A DNA stretch of 64,000 bases from an uncultured Ectothiorhodospiraceae bacterium (GTDB lineage Bacteria; Pseudomonadota; Gammaproteobacteria; XJ16; Halofilaceae). The position numbers and the translations under genes are program-made. The stretch covers positions 1-64,000 of the forward strand of contig CAJXKK010000013.1 of assembly GCA_913055615.1 (NCBI GenBank). The letters run 5' to 3'. Numbering within the stretch: the stretch's first letter is position 1; the number at the start of each line of letters is the position of its first letter. The notes beneath the pieces were generated by a model that saw nothing but the letters and a program-made list of their open reading frames with translations, searched no databases and had not been told where the DNA came from. Below, piece by piece: positions 52,688 through 61,935 of this stretch.

Positions 52688-53521
52688 ATGAAACACATCG
52701 AGCTGCCGGGCGGCGAACGCGTCCCCGCGCTGGGCCAGGGGACCTGGCACATGGGCGACAGGCGCGGCGAGCGCGAGCGTGAAGTCGCGGCCGTGCGCGC
52801 CGGCATCGACGCCGGCCTGACGCTGATCGACACGGCGGAGATGTACGGCGATGGCGAGGCCGAGCGCGTGGTCGGCGAGGCCATGGGGGCCAGGCGCAAG
52901 GAACTCTTCCTCGTCAGCAAGGTGTTCCCGCACAACGCCTCGCGCGCCGGCGTCCGCGCGGCCTGTGAGGCGAGCCTTGAACGCCTCGGCACCGACCAGG
53001 TCGACCTCTACCTGCTGCATTGGCGCGGCGGCGCCGATCTCGCCGAGGCGGTGGCCGGCTTCGAGGACCTGCAGCGCGAGGGACTGATCCGCTACTGGGG
53101 TGTGAGCAACTTCGACGCGACCGACCTGGCCGACCTCTGGCGGGTGCCGGGCGGCGACGCCTGCAGCGCCAACCAGCTCCTGTACCACCTCGGCGAGCGC
53201 GCCATCGAGCGCGACCCGCTGCCGTGGATGCGGGAGTACGGGATCCCCGCCATGGCCTATTGCCCGCTCGGCCAGGGCCGTCTGCTGAAACAGCGCGCCC
53301 TTCGCGACTTCGCCGGACGCACCGGGATCACCCCCGCGCAGGCCGCACTCGCGTGGCTGCAGGCGCGCGCCGAAGTCATCGCCATTCCGAAGACGAGCGA
53401 TCCGGACCGGCAGACCGAGAACCGCGCCGCGGCCGAGATTACGCTCGACCGGGAACAGCTCGCCGAGCTGGATCACATGTTCCCGCCACCCAAAGCCAGC
53501 GGCCCATTGCCGATTGTCTGA
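52688..53521 (+). CDS. Aldo/keto reductase
   Basis: A 277-aa NADPH-dependent oxidoreductase. Catalytic tetrad Asp48, Tyr53 (LIDTAEMYG), Lys78 (VSKVFP) and His111 (LLHWRGG). GVSNFDATDL and IPKTSDPDR are the usual later motifs. Substrate unknown; reduction of small aldehydes is typical. Part of the 5' region and a short central piece are repeated at 61507-61606 and 63064-63110, showing a second, broken copy. Confidence 0.92.
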   Translation: MKHIELPGGERVPALGQGTWHMGDRRGEREREVAAVRAGIDAGLTLIDTAEMYGDGEAERVVGEAMGARRKELFLVSKVFPHNASRAGVRAACEASLERLGTDQVDLYLLHWRGGADLAEAVAGFEDLQREGLIRYWGVSNFDATDLADLWRVPGGDACSANQLLYHLGERAIERDPLPWMREYGIPAMAYCPLGQGRLLKQRALRDFAGRTGITPAQAALAWLQARAEVIAIPKTSDPDRQTENRAAAEITLDREQLAELDHMFPPPKASGPLPIV

Positions 53522-53742: not shown

Positions 53743-54198
53743 TCAGACGCCCCGCTGGTCCGCCAGCAGCCGCTGGAGGCGCTCGACCTCCTTCCGTGCC
53801 TCGACTTCCCTGGTGACGTCGTACTGCACCCCGAGGAAGTAGATCAGCCCACCGTTGCGATCGGTCAGCGGCTTTATCGTAAACCGGTTCCAGAAAAGCT
53901 CGCCGTTGCGGCGATAGTTACGCAGCGTGACCGTCGCCTCGCTTTGTGCCGCGATCGCTCGACGGATATCGTCAAGGCCGGTCTGATCCCGGTCATCGCC
54001 GTGAAGGAATCGACAGTTGCGCCCGATGATTTCCGCGTGCGAATAGCCGGTAACCCGCTCGAAGGCGGCATTCGCGTAGACGATCGGGTTGTCCGCCTGA
54101 TCAGGATCCGACACCGTGATACCCGTGACGCAGGCATCCAGTATCTGCGCCAGCACGAACGGGATCGGACCTTCGTCCTTCTCTACCGTGAAATCCAT
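53743..54198 (-). CDS. Short LOV blue-light receptor
   Basis: A 151-aa PAS protein almost entirely made of one LOV domain plus a C-terminal helix (EARKEVERLQRLLAD) that could form a coiled coil. The photoactive Cys is Cys62 in GRNCRFLHGDD. FMN-binding residues are visible in YANAAFERVTGYSHAEIIG, NYRRNGELFWNRF and YFLGVQYDVTREV. There is no output domain, so it would act by dimer change or by binding a partner. It lies 20 nt after the SRPBCC gene and divergent from the rhodopsin. Confidence 0.9.
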   Translation of the reverse strand: MDFTVEKDEGPIPFVLAQILDACVTGITVSDPDQADNPIVYANAAFERVTGYSHAEIIGRNCRFLHGDDRDQTGLDDIRRAIAAQSEATVTLRNYRRNGELFWNRFTIKPLTDRNGGLIYFLGVQYDVTREVEARKEVERLQRLLADQRGV

Positions 54199-54218
54199 AC
54201 TCGCCCTCGCCCGTCAGG

Positions 54219-54674
54219 TCAGTTTTCGCGCTCGATCAAGCCCTTGATGTCGCGCACGGTTTTGTCGGTGCCTTCCTGGATGGCGTGCCGGATCAGTTTC
54301 TCAAAAGGACGCATGAACAGGTCGAGCTGCTTGAGCTCGAACTCCAGGTGCAGCGTGGATGATTGTGCCCCATTCGCCTCGAAACGGTAGCGGATCGCGA
54401 AGCGCGCCTGGCGGTCGCCATCGAAGTCCACGGCCCGCTCCGGTTCGAGGCGCGTCACCTCGAACGTCGTCTCGCTGCGCCGGCCATGGTCGACGCGGAC
54501 CTGACGCCCGCGCGTGCCCAGGCGAACGGGCCCGTCACTGATCGCCCGCAGTTCACGCACCTCGGGTGACCAGCGCGGGTAGTTCTCGAAAAACCGCACC
54601 ACCACGAAGTCGTACACCGTTTCCACGGGGCGCGCGATCTCTACACTGGAGCGGCCCTTGATCAATGCATGCAC
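54219..54674 (-). CDS. SRPBCC (START/Bet v1-like) protein
   Basis: A 151-aa protein of the polyketide cyclase/dehydrase and lipid transport type. SSVEIARPVETVYDFVV, FENYPRWSPEVREL and RYRFEANG precede a C-terminal helix (FMRPFEKLIRHAIQEG) that lines the pocket in this fold. It may bind a hydrophobic ligand. GTG at 54674 with GAGG close by is the likely start; the longer frame to 54905 would include a Thr-Ala hexanucleotide repeat and is doubted. It forms a pair with the LOV gene. Confidence 0.75.
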   Translation of the reverse strand: MHALIKGRSSVEIARPVETVYDFVVVRFFENYPRWSPEVRELRAISDGPVRLGTRGRQVRVDHGRRSETTFEVTRLEPERAVDFDGDRQARFAIRYRFEANGAQSSTLHLEFELKQLDLFMRPFEKLIRHAIQEGTDKTVRDIKGLIEREN

Positions 54675-54825
54675 CTCACAATCGCCAGTTCGAGCCGAGC
54701 GCGCCAGCGGTTGCAACGCCACCACGGCGTCGATTTCCCGAACCCCGGATTCACCAGGACCCGGGCGTACGCCCGGGAATATGCCAGTCCACTCCCCGGT
54801 TAACCAGAGGGTGGCCGCCATCGCG

Positions 54826-54859
<34 letters not shown>

Positions 54860-55192
54860 AGTGGACACCATCCGTATTGGAGACGGCGCGGATGCACACG
54901 CTCACCGCCGCAAACAGCCGACAGGCATCGAGCGGGGGAGTGGATTCCTCGGCGACCGCCCACCACGTTGAATCCGTACCTTACCAGCAAGCGAAACGCC
55001 AGAAGAGCGTTCAAAACGTTCATTTACGGGCCCAAGAGCGCCGGCTTTGAGGCGGGGATGAATGCGGACTGGAGTGGCCATCTCATGTCCATACGGCCGA
55101 GTGTGAAATGCCACGCGCAGCCGCATCGTTGACCAGCTGGCTGAATGGGCAGCACCAGCAACCGAAAATGACCTTCCGCGAAGGGGAATAAA

Positions 55193-55951
55193 ATGGATGG
55201 ATTGACAGTTTCCACCGTCGGCCAATATGACCTTATATACAACGCTTTTTCCTTTGGCATCGCAACCTTTGCGGCCGCCACTCTTTTCTTTTGGTTCGGA
55301 CTGGCGCGCGTGTCGCAGGAATACCGCACGGCGATCGTGATAACCGGTCTCGTTACGTTCATTGCGTTCTACCATTACTTTCGCATTTTCGAGAGCTGGC
55401 AGAGCGCCTACGAAGTATCCGACGGGGCGGTAGAACTGACCGGTGTCGCCTTCAACGAGGCCTACCGATACGTCGACTGGCTCCTGACCGTACCGCTGCT
55501 TCTGATCGAATTGATCCTCGTGATGCGGTTGTCGCAGTCGGAGACCGTTCGCCGCAGTGTAACGCTGGGCGGCGCCGCTGCATTGATGATCCTCCTCGGC
55601 TATCCCGGCGAGGTCAGTGAAGGGATCGGCGGCAGCCGGCTCTTGTGGGGCGTGCTGTCAATGATCCCATTCCTCTACATCGTTTACAGCCTCTTCTCCG
55701 GACTCTCCGACGCCATAGCTCGGCAGCCCGCCAACGTGCGGCATCTGGTCAGTGCGGCCCGCTCGTTGACGGTCGTGGTCTGGTTCTTCTACCCGATCGT
55801 TTACTTCGCGCCTTTCGTTCTGCCAATGGACGGTGGCACCGCGAAGGCGACGATCGAAGTGGGGTATACGCTGGCCGATATCTTCGCCAAGGCCGGATTC
55901 GGTCTGCTGATCTTCACGATCGCTGTCCGCAAGTCCGAGGCCGGTCACTGA
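55193..55951 (+). CDS. Xanthorhodopsin-like light-driven proton pump
   Basis: A 252-aa seven-helix retinal protein. Helix C holds Asp95 (acceptor), Thr99 and Glu106 (donor): YRYVDWLLTVPLLLIELILV. His61 (FYHYFRIF) is the counterion partner. Helix G has Asp229 and the retinal Lys233 in LADIFAKAGFG. Leu103 at the tuning site predicts green absorption. The sequence follows Salinibacter xanthorhodopsin over its length (GYPGEVSEG, LWGVLSMIPF). Gly153 replaces the Trp138 of bacteriorhodopsin, so a carotenoid antenna may fit. GGGGA stands 6 nt before the ATG. Confidence 0.95.
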   Translation: MDGLTVSTVGQYDLIYNAFSFGIATFAAATLFFWFGLARVSQEYRTAIVITGLVTFIAFYHYFRIFESWQSAYEVSDGAVELTGVAFNEAYRYVDWLLTVPLLLIELILVMRLSQSETVRRSVTLGGAAALMILLGYPGEVSEGIGGSRLLWGVLSMIPFLYIVYSLFSGLSDAIARQPANVRHLVSAARSLTVVVWFFYPIVYFAPFVLPMDGGTAKATIEVGYTLADIFAKAGFGLLIFTIAVRKSEAGH

Positions 55952-55959
55952 TGGGACTG

Positions 55960-56047
55960 GGGGCGACCGGTTCGCGTGCCGGTCGCCCCGGCCCCGTTTT
56001 GCCGTTGTCGCCGTCGCTTGCCCGACGACCACAACGGCAAAACGGGG
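55960..56047. terminator. Two consecutive perfect hairpins between rhodopsin and crtE
   Basis: Hairpin 1: an 11-bp stem GGGGCGACCGG/CCGGTCGCCCC (55960-55970/55979-55989). Hairpin 2: a 17-bp perfect stem, CCCCGTTTTGCCGTTGT (55992-56008) with its reverse complement at 56031-56047; the 22-nt loop has an inner CGTCG/CGACG stem. No T-run follows. They may terminate or attenuate, or protect the rhodopsin mRNA end, so that crtE onward is made at a lower level. Confidence 0.65.
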
Positions 56048-56088
56048 TGCACGGAACCGTCAATCGTTATCGGCCCACGAAGGAGCAG

Positions 56089-56985
56089 GTGGATGGTCCT
56101 TGGGCTGTTACGGGGGCGAAATTGGATCCGGATGCTTTGATGGATCGCGAGATTGCGCGCGTCGAGGCGCACATGACCGAGCTCTGTGAAACGACCGGGC
56201 CGACGGTCACGGCGGCGGCGGTTCGCGATCACCTCGCCGCCGGGGGCCAACGGTTCCGGGCTCGTCTCGCTCTGGACGCGGGCCGCCGTCTGGGCCTCCC
56301 GCCGGATCGGCGCGTTGCCATCGCCAGTGCGAGCGAATTGCTGCACAACGCATCGCTTGTCCACGATGACATCCAGGATGGCGACACCGAGCGGCGCGAC
56401 CGACGGGCCATCTGGGCAGAGTACGGCAGTTGCGTCGGCATCTGCGTGGGCGACCTGTTCCTCTCCGCTGCCTACGCGGCCCTGGCCGGGGCGCATGCGA
56501 ATACGGCCGAGCTGCTGGTCCACGCCCATAGCCGCGTAGCGACGGCAATCGACGGCCAGACCGCTGACCTGCGCGCTGCGCCCGGGATGTCCGATATCAA
56601 CACCTACTTCTCCATAGCCGGCGCGAAGTCCGGGGGCCTGCTTGCCCTGCCCCTGGAGCTTTCACTGCTGGCGGTCGGTCGGCGCGATGCACTCGCCATG
56701 GCCGCCGCGGCGGCCGAGGCTTTCGCTATCGGATACCAGATCGTCGACGATCTTGCGGACAGGCATGACGACTGCCTGCGGGAACAGCTCAACATCTTGA
56801 CTGTGCTGGCCGCCGGGGGCGAACCCGACCCGGCGGCGGCCGCGACGGCGCTGGCGATTACATGCTTCGATGACAGCCTGGCCACGTCCTGCAACCTGCC
56901 GGCGGCCAGCGGTACGCTTGTCGGTCAACGGGCGCGGAGCCTGCGCCGCGCGGTCAACGCGTCGACGACCGGGGTACCGGCATGA
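56089..56985 (+). CDS. crtE: Geranylgeranyl diphosphate synthase CrtE
   Basis: A 298-aa isoprenyl diphosphate synthase. The first Asp-rich motif is in LVHDDIQDGD and the second in QIVDDLADRHDD; GGQRFRARL near the start binds diphosphate. It makes C20 geranylgeranyl diphosphate for the carotenoids. The ATG overlapping the rhodopsin stop (55951) is in frame but would translate the hairpins; GTG at 56089 with AGGAG before it, or ATG 56140, are better starts. Overlaps crtI by 4 nt. Confidence 0.88.
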   Translation: MDGPWAVTGAKLDPDALMDREIARVEAHMTELCETTGPTVTAAAVRDHLAAGGQRFRARLALDAGRRLGLPPDRRVAIASASELLHNASLVHDDIQDGDTERRDRRAIWAEYGSCVGICVGDLFLSAAYAALAGAHANTAELLVHAHSRVATAIDGQTADLRAAPGMSDINTYFSIAGAKSGGLLALPLELSLLAVGRRDALAMAAAAAEAFAIGYQIVDDLADRHDDCLREQLNILTVLAAGGEPDPAAAATALAITCFDDSLATSCNLPAASGTLVGQRARSLRRAVNASTTGVPA

Positions 56986-58478
56986 CCCGCTCTGTAGTGA
57001 TCGGAGGTGGATTTGGCGGGATCGCGGCCGCACTGCGCCTCCGGGCGCGCGGGCACGATGTCGCACTGGTCGATCGCTGCAAGCGACTCGGGGGGCGGGC
57101 GCAGGTGTTCGAGCACGGCGGTTATCGACACGACGCCGGGCCAACCGTGATCACCGCGCCCTTCCTGCTGCGCGAGCTGTTCGCACTTTTCGGACGTGAA
57201 CTCGATGACTACGCGACCCTTGTGCCGCTGGCCCCGTGGTACCGGTTTTACTTCGACGACGGCACCGAGTTCGATTACGGCGGCACGATTGACGACACGC
57301 TGCGGGCGATCGAGCGGATCGAGCCACGCGACGTCGAGGGTTACCAGCGACTGGTCGAGGACTCGCGCCGTCTTTACGAAGTCGGTTTCAGCGGACTGGG
57401 CGACCAGCCATTCCACCGATTCGGTTTCATGCTGCGTCAACTGCCGGCTCTGGCGCGTCTGCGCGCCGACCGCAGCGTATGGCGGATGGTTGAACGCCGT
57501 CTGCAAAGCCCCAAGCTGCGCCAGGCGTTTTCCATCCAGCCGCTGCTGCTTGGCGGTAACCCCTTCGATACGACCAGTATCTATGGCCTGATTCACTACC
57601 TTGAGCGCGCGCACGGCGTTCACTTCGTCATGGGCGGAACGGGGGCCCTGGTGGATGGACTGACCCGATTGATGCGGGAAGTCGGAATAGAAATCCACAC
57701 GGATACCACGGTCGGAGCAATCGATGTACGCAACAACGCCGTCAGCGGCATTACCACCTCGGCAGGGACGCACATGGGCGCTGATCACGTCGTGGCGGAC
57801 GTCGATCCATTCCACCTTTACACCCGATTGCTGCCGGCGAATACGAGTCGCTGGTCGGCGCGCCTGAAGAGCCGGTACGGCAAAGCATCGATGGGGCTTT
57901 TCGTCCTGTTCTTCGGCACCGCACGCAGCTATCCGGGTATCGCCCACCATACGATATGGATGGGGCCACGGTATCGTGGACTGCTGGACGATATCTTCCA
58001 CAACGGCGTCCTCGCCGAGGATTTCTCCATCTATCTGCATAGGCCCACGGCGACCGATCCCGATTTTGCCCCCGCCGGGCACGACAGTTTCTACGCCCTT
58101 GTCCCAGTGCCGAACATGGAGACGCCCATAGACTGGGCGGTCGAGGGTCCAAGGCTGCGCGATCGGATCGTAATGGCCCTCGGGCGCACGATCCTGCCCG
58201 GATTGCAGGATCACATCCGCGCCGATTTTTACATGGCACCGCCAGACTTCGCCGAACGCTATCTGGCGCACACCGGATCCGGTTTTTCGATGGCGCCGCT
58301 GTTTCGCCAGTCGGCGTGGTTCCGCTTCCACAACCGGGCCGAGGGACCGGCACATCTGCATCTGGTTGGCGCGGGCAGCCATCCGGGCGCCGGGCTGCCG
58401 GGGGTGCTGAGCTCGGCCAAGGTGGTCGAACGCCTGCTTGACGCATCGCCGCCTCCATCGACGAGGACCGCAGCATGA
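56982..58478 (+). CDS. crtI: Phytoene desaturase CrtI
   Basis: A 498-aa FAD-dependent CrtI. The dinucleotide motif is VVIGGGFGGIAAALRLRARG at the start, followed by GGRAQVFEHGGYRHDAGPTV. The C-terminal FAD block is HLVGAGSHPGAGLPGVLSSA. The bacterial CrtI type normally makes lycopene from phytoene in four steps; three-step forms exist and cannot be excluded. Starts within the crtE stop (ATGA) and ends in the same way on crtB. Confidence 0.94.
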   Translation: MTRSVVIGGGFGGIAAALRLRARGHDVALVDRCKRLGGRAQVFEHGGYRHDAGPTVITAPFLLRELFALFGRELDDYATLVPLAPWYRFYFDDGTEFDYGGTIDDTLRAIERIEPRDVEGYQRLVEDSRRLYEVGFSGLGDQPFHRFGFMLRQLPALARLRADRSVWRMVERRLQSPKLRQAFSIQPLLLGGNPFDTTSIYGLIHYLERAHGVHFVMGGTGALVDGLTRLMREVGIEIHTDTTVGAIDVRNNAVSGITTSAGTHMGADHVVADVDPFHLYTRLLPANTSRWSARLKSRYGKASMGLFVLFFGTARSYPGIAHHTIWMGPRYRGLLDDIFHNGVLAEDFSIYLHRPTATDPDFAPAGHDSFYALVPVPNMETPIDWAVEGPRLRDRIVMALGRTILPGLQDHIRADFYMAPPDFAERYLAHTGSGFSMAPLFRQSAWFRFHNRAEGPAHLHLVGAGSHPGAGLPGVLSSAKVVERLLDASPPPSTRTAA

Positions 58479-59431
58479 CCGTCCTGGCGCGCGAGAATGA
58501 CTGCCGGCTGCGGAACCCGCGCGACGACCGTGCGGCGCGTGCAACGCTCCGCAACCACGGTCGTTCATTCCACTTCGCCAGCCAGCTGATGGGGCGACGC
58601 CATGCAAGTCGGGCGGCACGCCTGTATTCCTTCTGCCGGCATGTGGACGACCTCGCGGACAACGCGCGTGTACCCGCGGACGCCGCCGCGCAGTTGGCCG
58701 AAGTGCGCCGCGGCATCGCCGAGTACAGTCCGCGCAACGCGATATCGGCGGACTTCCTCGAGCTTGCCGAAGAGACCGACATGCCGCTGGCGCCGGCACT
58801 GGCGCTGATCGACGGCGCGTGCGACGACCTCGCGGGTGTCACCATCGCCGACGAATCCGATCTTCTGCGCTACGCGCACTCCGTCGCCGGAACGGTCGGT
58901 GCCATGATGTGCCACGTACTCGACGTCAGCGATCCCGCCGCCGTGCCGCACGCGGTCGACCTGGGGATCGCCATGCAGTTGACCAATATCGCCCGGGACG
59001 TCGGCGAGGATGCGCGTGCGGGTCGGCGCTACCTGCCAGCGAGCTGGGTGGATGGCGCCGATGCCGCGCTGATCCAGGATCCGGATGAGGCACTGCGGCC
59101 GCTGTTGCGCAGCGCCATAGCACGCAGCATCCAGCTCGCCGAATCCTACTATGCCAGCGGTGAGGCGGGTCTTTCCTACATTCCGCCGCGCGCCCGCCCT
59201 GCAATCCGCGTCGCCGCAAGGGTTTATCGCGCGATCGGCGGCCGGGTCGCCGCCAACGATTACTGCAGCTGGCGAGAGCGCGCGATCGTCGGTCACGGGC
59301 GCAAACTTGTACTCGCCGCCGGCGCACTCGCGGCTCCCCGCACGGGCAGTCGGAGACGGCCGATGCATGATCCGGCCCTGCACCAGTGTCTGGCGGGATG
59401 CTACGGGGTGGACAAGCGGGCGCAGCGTTGA
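58475..59431 (+). CDS. crtB: Phytoene synthase CrtB
   Basis: A 318-aa trans-isoprenyl diphosphate synthase-fold enzyme joining two geranylgeranyl diphosphates to phytoene. Asp-rich motifs: CRHVDDLADNA and NIARDVGEDARAGRRYLP. The segment FHFASQLMGRRHASRAARL near the start is typical. It overlaps crtI by 4 nt and crtY by 1 nt (TGATG). Confidence 0.94.
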   Translation: MTVLARENDCRLRNPRDDRAARATLRNHGRSFHFASQLMGRRHASRAARLYSFCRHVDDLADNARVPADAAAQLAEVRRGIAEYSPRNAISADFLELAEETDMPLAPALALIDGACDDLAGVTIADESDLLRYAHSVAGTVGAMMCHVLDVSDPAAVPHAVDLGIAMQLTNIARDVGEDARAGRRYLPASWVDGADAALIQDPDEALRPLLRSAIARSIQLAESYYASGEAGLSYIPPRARPAIRVAARVYRAIGGRVAANDYCSWRERAIVGHGRKLVLAAGALAAPRTGSRRRPMHDPALHQCLAGCYGVDKRAQR

Positions 59432-60579
59432 TGACAACCGACGTCGATATCGAAGGGGTCATCCTCGGCGGCGGCTGCTCGGGACTGTCACTGGGTATGC
59501 AGCTCGCCCGGCGCGGGAGTCGCCGCCGGGTGGTCATCATCGAGCCGCGCACCGAGTACGGCGACGACCGCAGCTGGTGCTTCTGGGCCTCTCCCGACCA
59601 TGGGCTTGCACGGCGGACAACACGGCAATGGCCTGAATGGCTATTCGGCGCTGCCGGCCGCTCACCGATCCACCACCGGTGCGAACACGCACCCTATCAA
59701 TACCTGCGGGCCCGGGACTTCTACGCCGAGGCCGGCGCGTGGATCACCGCGGATCCGAACATCGAACTCCGGCAAGGCACCCGGGCGGGCGCCGTGCATC
59801 GCTCTGGCGATGGCGTGGCAGTGCAGACGAGCGCCGGCATGCTCAGCGCCCGCTGGGTAATCGATACGCGACCGCCGGGCGCCTCCGCACAAGCGCTTCT
59901 GTATCAATGTTTCGAGGGACATGAGGTGCGGCCATCTCCGGCCACGGCGCCGGACCCGTACCGTATCGAGCTGATGACCGATATGCGTGCGGATGACCTC
60001 GGCTTCGTTTTCAGTTATGTCCTGCCACTGACGCGCGAACGCGTTCTCGTGGAGTCGACCCGATTCGCTCCCGAACCGGTCGCGCCCGCGCGTCTGACGG
60101 CCGATACCGAGGCATTGCTGGACGCGCGTGGCTGGCGCGGCGCCCCGCGCGAGCGCACGGAACGGGGCGTTCTGCCCATGGGGCTTGTCACCGACAGCGC
60201 ACCGGAAACCGCGGGTATCGTGCGTGCCGGCATCGCCGGTGGGGGCCTGAGGGCGGCGAGCGGCTATGGCTTCATGCGGATTCAGGAGTGGGCCCACTCC
60301 TGCGCGGAGCACCTGGAGCGCACCGGCCGTCCACTCGGTCATCCGCCCGAACCGTTGGTTCGACGCGTTATGGATCGCGTATTCCTGCAAGCCGTGCGAT
60401 CCAACCCGGAGCGGGCGGCCGACTTCTTCCTCGGGGTTGCAGGGGGCCTGGACGCAGCCGCGTTCGTACGCTTCATGACTGATGGCGCGCGCCCGCGGGA
60501 TTACCTGAAGGTGGCGGCAAGCCTGCCGCCAGGTCCGTTCCTGCGCGCAGTGATGAAACCGAGGGGAGGCCGGGAATGA
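59431..60579 (+). CDS. crtY: Lycopene beta-cyclase CrtY
   Basis: A 382-aa CrtY-type flavoprotein. N-terminal dinucleotide site GVILGGGCSGLSLGMQLARR and the motif DDRSWCFW are diagnostic; YGFMRIQEWA is a later block. It closes both ends of lycopene to give beta-carotene. The start at 59431 overlaps the crtB stop. An earlier in-frame Met at 59386 lies within crtB. Confidence 0.9.
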   Translation: MTTDVDIEGVILGGGCSGLSLGMQLARRGSRRRVVIIEPRTEYGDDRSWCFWASPDHGLARRTTRQWPEWLFGAAGRSPIHHRCEHAPYQYLRARDFYAEAGAWITADPNIELRQGTRAGAVHRSGDGVAVQTSAGMLSARWVIDTRPPGASAQALLYQCFEGHEVRPSPATAPDPYRIELMTDMRADDLGFVFSYVLPLTRERVLVESTRFAPEPVAPARLTADTEALLDARGWRGAPRERTERGVLPMGLVTDSAPETAGIVRAGIAGGGLRAASGYGFMRIQEWAHSCAEHLERTGRPLGHPPEPLVRRVMDRVFLQAVRSNPERAADFFLGVAGGLDAAAFVRFMTDGARPRDYLKVAASLPPGPFLRAVMKPRGGRE

Positions 60580-61493
60580 ACACGCGCGCCCGGCTGCTTC
60601 CGGGCTGGCCAGTCGAGACCTGGCTGTTCCTGTCCGGTTCCGTGCTGGCATTGGCGGTTGCGCCGATCGCCAGCGAGCTGGCGAGCAGGACATTCTGGAT
60701 CGGCATTCTGGCAACCGGCGTGGCGTTTGCGGGCCTGCCGCACGGCGCGCTAGACCCGTGGATCGCCTACCGTGCCGGAGTCTGGCGGCACGCGCCGGAT
60801 TTTGTGGTGTTCAATCTCGCCTACCTGCTGCTGGCCTGCGCCCTGGCGCTACTGTGGTGGACATTCCCCGCGCTTGCGCTGGCACTCTTCCTCGCCTACG
60901 CCACCTGGCACTTCAGCGCCGACTGGCGCGACACCCTTGACGTGGGCTGGCGCCTCGTCGCCGGCATCGGCCTGATCGCACTGCCCGCGGTCTTCCACGA
61001 GGCCAGGGTCAACGAAGTCTTCAGCGTGCTCGCCGGCAGCGGCGGGCAGTCGATCACGGCGGCCATGGCATGGGCCGGTCCGGCAGTCATCGGCGGCTAT
61101 GCGCTAGCCACCGTGGCCGCGATACGCAGGGCGCCACGGGTGGGGCTGGAGCTTGCAACGATCGCCTTGCTTGCCTTCGCCTTGCCGCCGCTCGCTTATT
61201 TCGCCGTCTATTTCTGTCTGCTGCACAGCAGCCGCCACCTGCGCCACCACGTAACCGCCGGCGAGGCAGGCGAGCGGCGCCTCGCGGCGATGATCGCGAT
61301 CGCCTACACGATCGTGACCCTCTTGCTGGCGGCAATTCTGTGGTATGCGATCGGCGCGAATGCCGCAATCGACGAGGCGCTGCTGCGTGTCGTGTTCATC
61401 GGACTGGCCGCACTCACCGTGCCCCATATGGCGCTCACACTCTATCTGGAACATCGGGGCGAAGGTGATTTCACAGCCGATACCCCTCCTTGA
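60576..61493 (+). CDS. blh: Beta-carotene 15,15'-dioxygenase, Brp/Blh family
   Basis: A 305-aa membrane protein with about eight helices. Conserved His residues appear in GLPHGALD, ATWHFSADW, LLHSSRHLRHH and VPHMALTLYLE, the metal-ligand set of the Blh family. It cleaves beta-carotene into two retinal molecules. It is the last gene of the cluster and overlaps crtY by 4 nt. It completes retinal supply for the rhodopsin. Confidence 0.92.
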   Translation: MNTRARLLPGWPVETWLFLSGSVLALAVAPIASELASRTFWIGILATGVAFAGLPHGALDPWIAYRAGVWRHAPDFVVFNLAYLLLACALALLWWTFPALALALFLAYATWHFSADWRDTLDVGWRLVAGIGLIALPAVFHEARVNEVFSVLAGSGGQSITAAMAWAGPAVIGGYALATVAAIRRAPRVGLELATIALLAFALPPLAYFAVYFCLLHSSRHLRHHVTAGEAGERRLAAMIAIAYTIVTLLLAAILWYAIGANAAIDEALLRVVFIGLAALTVPHMALTLYLEHRGEGDFTADTPP

Positions 61494-61506: not shown

Positions 61507-61612
61507 CGCATCGGTCGGGAATCAGGAGTTGCGATGAGAAACGTCGAGCTGACCGGCGGCAAAGGCGTCCCCGGGCTGGACCAGGGGACCTGGCACATGG
61601 GCGACAGCCGCC
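61507..61612 (+). pseudogene. 5' fragment of a second aldo/keto reductase
   Basis: Positions 61507-61606 match 52661-52760, including the leader CGCATCGG, the ribosome site ATCAGGAG and an ATG at 61534, with about ten mismatches by eye. The reading frame gives MRNVELTGGKGVPGLDQGTW and then leaves the family at about residue 25. A further piece of the gene is at 63064-63110. Confidence 0.75.
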
Positions 61613-61617
61613 GGATC

Positions 61618-61935
61618 GACGGTATCGGCTGTGCCGGCCGGCACCGAGGCGATCATCGTGGAGTTGATCACACGGGATGCCGACCCATTCGGTTCCGGAA
61701 TCGCGGCAGCGTGCAGAACGCCCTGCCACACAGGCCGCGCGTCCGACCCGGATGCACACGAGTTGTTGATACAGACGATCCGGTAGTCGTGCGGTGAGAA
61801 GCAGGGCACGCGCGTTATGTAATCACGCAGGATATCGTCTGCACGCCCGAACATCGGATTGTGTTCCGACATGAACTGCCGGGGCGACAACCCGAGATCG
61901 AACGCGCATGATGAGGTGCAGCAGCTTGGCCATTC
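61618..61935 (-). pseudogene. Broken gene of unknown family
   Basis: On the minus strand a frame reads FDLGLSPRQFMSEHNPMFGR, ADDILRDYITRVPCFSPHDY, RIVCINNSCASGSDAR and SASRVINSTMIASVP, with an even, protein-like composition. A possible start MAKLLHLI lies in another frame near 61935, so a frameshift is likely. The 3' end merges into the aldo/keto reductase fragment. I do not recognise the family. Confidence 0.4.

What the first reader, a model, noticed from the sequence alone, without database searches (positions are those of the whole stretch)
53743..61493. Light-sensing and light-harvesting island: SRPBCC-LOV pair divergent from xanthorhodopsin and a complete retinal pathway
A short LOV receptor with its photoactive Cys62 and an SRPBCC protein form a minus-strand pair facing a xanthorhodopsin-like pump, followed by crtE-I-B-Y-blh. 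The rhodopsin-carotenoid order is known. The adjacent LOV plus ligand-pocket protein is, to my knowledge, not a standard part. It could sense blue light and adjust rhodopsin or carotenoid production, with the SRPBCC protein binding retinal or carotenoid.
Basis: partly seen in the sequence, partly recalled or inferred. Interest (0 to 1): 0.75.

Follow-up and report, generated by a model that had tools for sequence, protein, structure and literature searches.

The report
Conserved START–LOV pair beside rhodopsin cassette
A blue-light sensor protein (short LOV) is almost always encoded right behind one small ligand-pocket (START/SRPBCC) protein, which makes that protein its likely missing partner; the light-driven pump next door in this genome is a widely spread cassette that sits there only in this species.

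Summary
The genes are as described: a short LOV (53743-54198, -) with Cys62, an SRPBCC protein (54219-~54665, -), and a divergent xanthorhodopsin-type pump with crtE-I-B-Y-blh. The rhodopsin link does not hold up. A congener (G001) keeps the pair at the same locus with no rhodopsin in its genome. No rhodopsin lies near the pair in 44 other contexts, and other copies of the same rhodopsin cassette lack the pair. An aldo-keto reductase remnant abuts blh, consistent with insertion.

The pair itself is the finding. This LOV belongs to a monophyletic subfamily (100/100) carrying the N-cap signature of the characterised Methylocystis "McLOV" photoreceptors. Of 70 distinct subfamily genes, 67 have the SRPBCC gene immediately upstream on the same strand; 0 of 13 other short LOVs do. 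LOV and SRPBCC trees are congruent even between tandem paralogous pairs. In methanotrophs the pair usually heads an operon with a membrane fatty-acid-hydroxylase-family enzyme, often followed by MsrP-MsrQ.

The best reading is that SRPBCC is the cognate partner or effector of this effector-less photoreceptor. I found no description of the pair in the open-access library searched. The partner role is inferred from genome context; no binding, ligand or light response was measured.

The parts
53743..54198 (-). short LOV photoreceptor, McLOV type (151 aa; N-cap P13/D21/C23, T28, photoactive C62, Q125)
   Evidence: McLOV signature from PMC4416707
54219..54665 (-). SRPBCC/START (Polyketide_cyc2) protein, 148 aa from the likely TTG start at 54665; cognate partner of the LOV
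   Evidence: (AF2 pLDDT 94.7)
54666..55192 (.). divergent intergenic region, 527 bp; no sigma-70-like promoter found; no similarity to the region upstream of SRPBCC in congener G001
55193..55951 (+). xanthorhodopsin-type proton pump (separate, incidental neighbour)
56140..56985 (+). crtE polyprenyl synthase (ORF open from 55945; start 56059 or 56140)
56982..58478 (+). crtI phytoene desaturase
58475..59431 (+). crtB phytoene synthase
59386..60579 (+). crtY lycopene cyclase (start may be later)
60576..61493 (+). blh beta-carotene 15,15'-dioxygenase
61521..61629 (+). remnant of the 5' end of an aldo-keto reductase gene (direct repeat of 52688 region, 89% over 109 bp), edge of the inserted cassette

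Best explanation
LOV and SRPBCC form a self-contained two-protein blue-light module, and the xanthorhodopsin cassette is an unrelated cassette that came to lie beside it in this species. SHOWN by sequence: the LOV belongs to a distinct subfamily with intact photochemistry residues and the McLOV N-cap signature; 67 of 70 members have the SRPBCC gene directly upstream in the same orientation; the two trees agree, also between paralogous pairs in one cell; the pair is under purifying selection with or without rhodopsin. INFERRED: blue light forms the Cys62-flavin adduct, the N-cap/dimer rearranges, and the LOV changes its binding to the SRPBCC protein, which is the effector that the short LOV lacks in its own chain. 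The SRPBCC protein most likely carries or senses a hydrophobic ligand (lipid, isoprenoid or quinone). In methanotrophs it would serve the membrane FA-hydroxylase-family enzyme and the quinol-linked MsrPQ repair system of the same operon, that is, a light/photo-oxidative-stress response at the membrane. In the window organism the pair has no linked output gene and its target is unknown.
For: 67/70 linkage, and 67/68 of those with at least 600 bp of upstream sequence, against 0/13 short LOVs outside the subfamily. Monophyly 100/100. Tandem pairs a and b of the G250 genus fall into matching places in both the LOV and the SRPBCC tree. Conserved operons SRPBCC-LOV-FA_hydroxylase-MsrP-MsrQ and FAD-oxidoreductase-SRPBCC-LOV-RatA/COQ10-like, with FA_hydroxylase also beside two pairs in G738, outside Gammaproteobacteria. 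LitR/CarH, photolyase and BLUF genes beside some clusters. Purified McLOVs are dimeric, flavin-binding and photoactive (PMC4416707). Another short LOV binds its gene neighbour in a light-dependent way (PmSB-LOV/PmlR2, PMC9758184). dN/dS 0.09 (LOV) and 0.08 (SRPBCC) between congeners. SRPBCC models as a helix-grip fold like START and PYL hormone-receptor proteins. Rhodopsin absent from congeners and from other contexts.
Against: No interaction, ligand or light response was measured. Solo SRPBCC relatives (Nitrosomonas, Nitrosospira, Thiodictyon, the degP-linked paralogue) show that the fold has light-independent roles. Of the three exceptions, one is an AraC-LOV fusion, so at least one member signals otherwise; one is an extra LOV copy without SRPBCC; one is cut off by a contig edge. 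The sample is dominated by Methylococcales. Shared ancestry explains part of the tree agreement.
Confidence: 0.62

Rival explanations
1. One reading: the pair senses blue light and adjusts expression or chromophore supply of the adjacent rhodopsin/carotenoid operon, with SRPBCC binding retinal or carotenoid.
For: Divergent arrangement with a shared 527-bp intergenic region; both are light-related. A new local co-option in this one species cannot be excluded.
Against: Pair without rhodopsin in G001 and 43 further contexts; same cassette without pair in G055, G280, G363; neither protein has a DNA-binding domain; cassette edge marked by an AKR remnant; overlap of pair-bearing and rhodopsin-bearing genomes in a 369-genome sample is the window genome alone.
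Confidence: 0.07
2. Competitive-dimerisation model: the short LOV dampens a LOV-containing transcription factor by forming mixed dimers (as proposed for Methylocystis McLOV with an AraC-LOV regulator); SRPBCC only works in the same pathway.
For: Proposed in PMC4416707; an AraC-LOV of this subfamily exists in G738 (L166).
Against: The window genome has only one other LOV-like gene at E<=1e-20 (562 aa), outside the subfamily and with only PAS hits in Pfam; only one AraC-LOV among 70 subfamily members, whereas SRPBCC accompanies 67.
Confidence: 0.12
3. The pair is only co-transcribed: SRPBCC is a light-induced lipid/ligand protein of a photo-oxidative-stress regulon and never touches the LOV, which acts on another regulator (LitR-like).
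For: Some clusters sit beside LitR/CarH-type MerR genes, photolyase and MsrA/MsrPQ; class II LitR is the effector of PmSB-LOV (PMC9758184).
Against: Linkage 67/70 with fixed order and strand, while LitR, FA_hydroxylase and Msr genes come and go; matching subtypes of LOV and SRPBCC among paralogues.
Confidence: 0.2

Closest known systems
McLOV short LOV proteins of Methylocystis (El-Arab et al. 2015, PMC4416707)
   Same: N-cap Pro/Asp/Cys-turn signature, Thr next to N5 (T27 = window T28), short LOV architecture; an AraC-HTH-LOV of the same subfamily is found in G738
   Different: The SRPBCC neighbour is not mentioned (words operon, cyclase, gene cluster absent); their model relies on an AraC-LOV factor, not found in the window genome
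PmSB-LOV/PmlR2 and PpSB1/PpSB2-LOV of Pseudomonas (PMC9758184)
   Same: Short LOV without effector domain; encoded next to its interaction partner; about 110-bit PDB match to PpSB1
   Different: Partner is a MerR-type LitR regulator, not SRPBCC; those LOVs lack the N-cap signature and fall outside the subfamily
Proteorhodopsin/retinal cassette pR-crtE-I-B-Y-blh (e.g. Vibrio campbellii, PMC3380642)
   Same: Same genes in the same order in the window and in G055, G280, G363
   Different: Pump is xanthorhodopsin type; no light-sensor pair belongs to it
START/SRPBCC superfamily (PF10604; TTHA0849, MSMEG_0129, PYL receptors)
   Same: Predicted helix-grip fold with C-terminal helix, Foldseek E about 1e-8, TM up to 0.78
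   Different: Only weak sequence match to a solved structure (best E 0.04); conserved NYPRW, RQVRxDxGRR and MRPFEKLIR motifs are specific to this family

Membership tests
McLOV-type short LOV subfamily | Photoactive Cys in GxNCRFLQG and flavin-binding residues | tested here: met
   C62, N61, R63, N94, N104, Q125 invariant in the subfamily; window has H for Q at 66
McLOV-type short LOV subfamily | N-cap Pro12, Asp20, Cys turn (21-24), Thr27, Gln124 in McLOVr numbering | tested here: met
   window P13, D21, C23, T28, Q125; 100/100/90/100/100% conserved among paired members; definition from PMC4416707
McLOV-type short LOV subfamily | Phylogenetic clustering | tested here: met
   all subfamily rows incl. 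window and the AraC-LOV homologue on one side of a 100/100 branch
McLOV-type short LOV subfamily | Flavin binding, dimer, 38-180 s photocycle | not testable with these tools
   needs purified protein
McLOV competitive-dimerisation system | AraC-HTH-LOV transcription factor of the same subfamily in the genome | tested here: not met
   only one other LOV-like gene at E<=1e-20 in the own genome, not AraC
START/SRPBCC (PF10604) | Profile match above cut-off and helix-grip fold | tested here: met
   58 bits vs 27.4; AF2 pLDDT 94.7, Foldseek hits to START/Bet v 1 folds
START/SRPBCC (PF10604) | Bound hydrophobic ligand | not testable with these tools
   no ligand modelling done
Proteorhodopsin-retinal cassette | rhodopsin followed by crtE-I-B-Y-blh on one strand | tested here: met
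Xanthorhodopsin | helix-C D/T/E, retinal Lys, Gly156 fenestration | tested here: met
   alignment to 3ddl: DWLLTVPLLLIE, ADIFAK, LWG; XR F157/T160 are V/M here
Xanthorhodopsin | bound carotenoid antenna | not testable with these tools
   no ketolase/hydroxylase in the cluster; genome not searched for one

The most novel reading that the evidence does not exclude
SRPBCC-LOV is an undescribed class of bacterial photoreceptor complex: a short LOV dimer that, on blue light, grips or releases a START-fold lipid/quinone carrier and so switches a membrane lipid hydroxylase and periplasmic methionine-sulfoxide repair, most developed in methanotrophs.
Probability: 0.3. Interest if true: 0.8.

Novelty: new variant of a known kind. 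Interest (0 to 1): 0.57.

Why it matters
Short LOV proteins carry no output domain, and how most of them signal is open; the held literature names one partner type (class II LitR). A START-fold gene fixed beside 67 of 70 members of one LOV subfamily names a specific, cheaply testable partner. It would add ligand-pocket proteins to the outputs of blue-light sensing, link light to membrane lipid or redox repair in methanotrophs, and could supply a new optogenetic pair.

Tried and rejected
Rhodopsin-pair co-function: rejected on genome contexts. First-listed SRPBCC start (GTG 54905, 228 aa): rejected, the N-terminal 80 residues have no homologues and are in part a CGTCGC hexanucleotide repeat read through. 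SRPBCC as RatA/Rv0910 toxin: NCBIfam hit far below cut-off (22 vs 100 bits). Promoter scan of the divergent region: nothing found. AraC-LOV partner in the own genome: not found. LOV structure model: only pLDDT 77 with six sequences, not used. Mirror-tree correlation (r 0.76) not used alone because shared species history inflates it. Codon bias as evidence of recent transfer of the rhodopsin cassette: inconclusive (GC3 0.74-0.81 vs 0.82 +/- 0.04). Literature searches for LOV with SRPBCC or polyketide cyclase: no relevant paper.

Full report
WHAT IS THERE. The window (contig C13 of a 3.0-Mb genome) holds, on the minus strand, a 151-aa short LOV protein (53743-54198) preceded by an SRPBCC/START protein, and on the plus strand a xanthorhodopsin-type pump followed by crtE, crtI, crtB, crtY and blh. 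The SRPBCC start given by the ORF list is too early: homologues align only from about residue 80, DNA similarity to the congener ends at 54677, and a GAGG box precedes TTG 54665, giving 148 aa (the last step is my reading of the sequence).

THE PAIR DOES NOT DEPEND ON RHODOPSIN. The genome collection holds two other genomes of the genus, which is also the only genus held of its family and order. G001 has the pair (SRPBCC 89%, LOV 83% identical) at the corresponding locus and no rhodopsin gene anywhere; G002 has neither. Both genes evolve under purifying selection (dN/dS 0.08-0.09). Aligned to G001, the window carries the rhodopsin cassette between SRPBCC and a stump of an aldo-keto reductase gene (61521-61614) that continues into a neighbouring gene fragment; a full copy of the reductase lies on the other side of the pair. 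G001 has unrelated genes in that gap. DNA similarity between the congeners stops 12 nt upstream of the SRPBCC start codon, so the shared divergent promoter region is not conserved. In a sample of 369 genomes of the class, pair-bearing genomes (G000, G001, G250, G323, G343) and rhodopsin-bearing genomes (15) overlap only in the window's own genome, which is no more than chance would give. Three other genomes with 60-69% identical rhodopsins carry the same rho-crtE-I-B-Y order, with blh next, and no LOV or SRPBCC beside it. This is the known retinal cassette, described for example in Vibrio campbellii next to transposases (PMC3380642).

THE PAIR IS A UNIT. A search of 201 genomes of the order of G250 (it includes Methylomonas-like and other methanotroph loci) found this LOV type in 104 genomes and 27 of 48 genera. 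Together with class- and phylum-wide searches and a genome-contig scan with the SRPBCC alignment I could inspect 70 distinct LOV genes of the subfamily. 67 have an SRPBCC gene immediately upstream on the same strand, mostly 0-100 nt away; among the 68 with at least 600 bp of upstream sequence it is 67. The exceptions are one LOV cut off by a contig edge, one extra copy in a genome that also has a complete pair, and one LOV fused to an AraC-type regulator (L166). None of the 13 short LOVs outside the subfamily has SRPBCC beside it. The subfamily is one side of a 100/100 branch in the LOV tree (that tree holds 13 of the other LOVs, several on long branches). In genomes with two tandem pairs (G250 genus), pair a and pair b fall into corresponding, different groups in both the LOV and the SRPBCC tree. 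So the two genes were inherited as a unit through duplication, beyond what shared species history gives.

NEIGHBOURS OF THE PAIR ELSEWHERE. In 31 of 45 contexts of at least 9 kb a membrane protein of the FA_hydroxylase family (PF04116; its best NCBIfam hit, far below cut-off, is the ornithine-lipid hydroxylase OlsE) is nearby, usually directly downstream. In about 20 of these MsrP and MsrQ follow. A second arrangement is FAD-oxidoreductase - SRPBCC - LOV - RatA/COQ10-like protein. Some clusters adjoin MsrA, photolyase, a LitR/CarH-type MerR regulator or a BLUF protein. In G738, outside Gammaproteobacteria, FA_hydroxylase stands divergently beside two pairs. Carotenoid and rhodopsin genes are not among the recurrent neighbours. 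In the window genus, Marichromatium and G343 the pair stands alone.

HOW IT LIKELY WORKS. The LOV keeps all photochemical residues and, shifted by one residue, the N-cap Pro, Asp and Cys turn plus the Thr next to flavin N5 that define the Methylocystis McLOVs, which bind flavin, photobleach in blue light, dimerise and recover in 38-180 s (PMC4416707). Those authors proposed mixed dimers with an AraC-LOV factor; the window genome has none. For another short LOV, PmSB-LOV, the effector is its gene neighbour, bound in the light (PMC9758184). By that precedent and by the fixed linkage, the SRPBCC protein is the most likely partner. It is predicted with high confidence (pLDDT 94.7) as a helix-grip fold, the fold of START carriers and of the PYL receptors, which bind a small ligand and then a partner protein (the PYL function is my own knowledge). 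I infer that light changes LOV-SRPBCC binding and thereby the availability of a hydrophobic ligand or of the SRPBCC protein itself to membrane enzymes. Which ligand, and what the output is in the window organism, is not shown. The link to quinones (MsrQ, COQ10-like and FAD-oxidoreductase neighbours) is a suggestion only.

LIMITS. Genome sampling is uneven and rich in Methylococcales; adjacency for LOVs outside the subfamily was judged on +/-1.5 kb; the literature library is open access only; no complex could be modelled with the tools.

VERDICT. Observation confirmed. The 'light-sensing plus light-harvesting island' is a chance or very recent neighbourhood. The SRPBCC-LOV pair is a conserved, apparently undescribed two-gene blue-light module and is worth an experiment on its own account.

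Noticed in passing
L017:8990-9667 (G000:C24, about 25.0-25.7 kb): Second opsin of the own genome lacks the retinal lysine (Leu at that place in YTVADLVNL) and the helix-C Asp (Gly). It is followed 55 bp on by a flotillin-like gene and preceded by sugar-ABC-transporter genes: resembles FArhodopsin/Rh-noK (PMC10308929, PMC4915679).
   Followed up: partly
G000:C14:6526-6972 (L015), G001:C4 (L014), G002:C198 (L016): Paralogue of the SRPBCC protein in all three congeners next to degP-response regulator-histidine kinase, without LOV.
   Followed up: partly
L166:1480-2952: DJ-1/AraC-HTH-LOV fusion of the same LOV subfamily; matches the Methylocystis LOV transcription factor architecture of PMC4416707.
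   Followed up: partly
L110:9696-10568: BLUF domain fused to a PsiE membrane domain, next to an SRPBCC-LOV-FA_hydroxylase-MsrPQ cluster and a LitR/CarH-type gene; BLUF proteins of the same family next to two more clusters (L127, L137).
   Followed up: no
window 61521-61909: Fragments of an aldo-keto reductase and of another gene abutting blh, with an intact reductase copy at 52688-53521: footprint of the rearrangement that placed the rhodopsin cassette.
   Followed up: partly
window 54828-54862: Short GTCGCC hexanucleotide repeat in the SRPBCC-rhodopsin intergenic region.
   Followed up: no
L101:4732-5193 and homologues (6 loci): Small secreted Cys-containing protein of unknown family recurring beside the SRPBCC-LOV/Msr clusters; no NCBIfam hit.
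   Followed up: no
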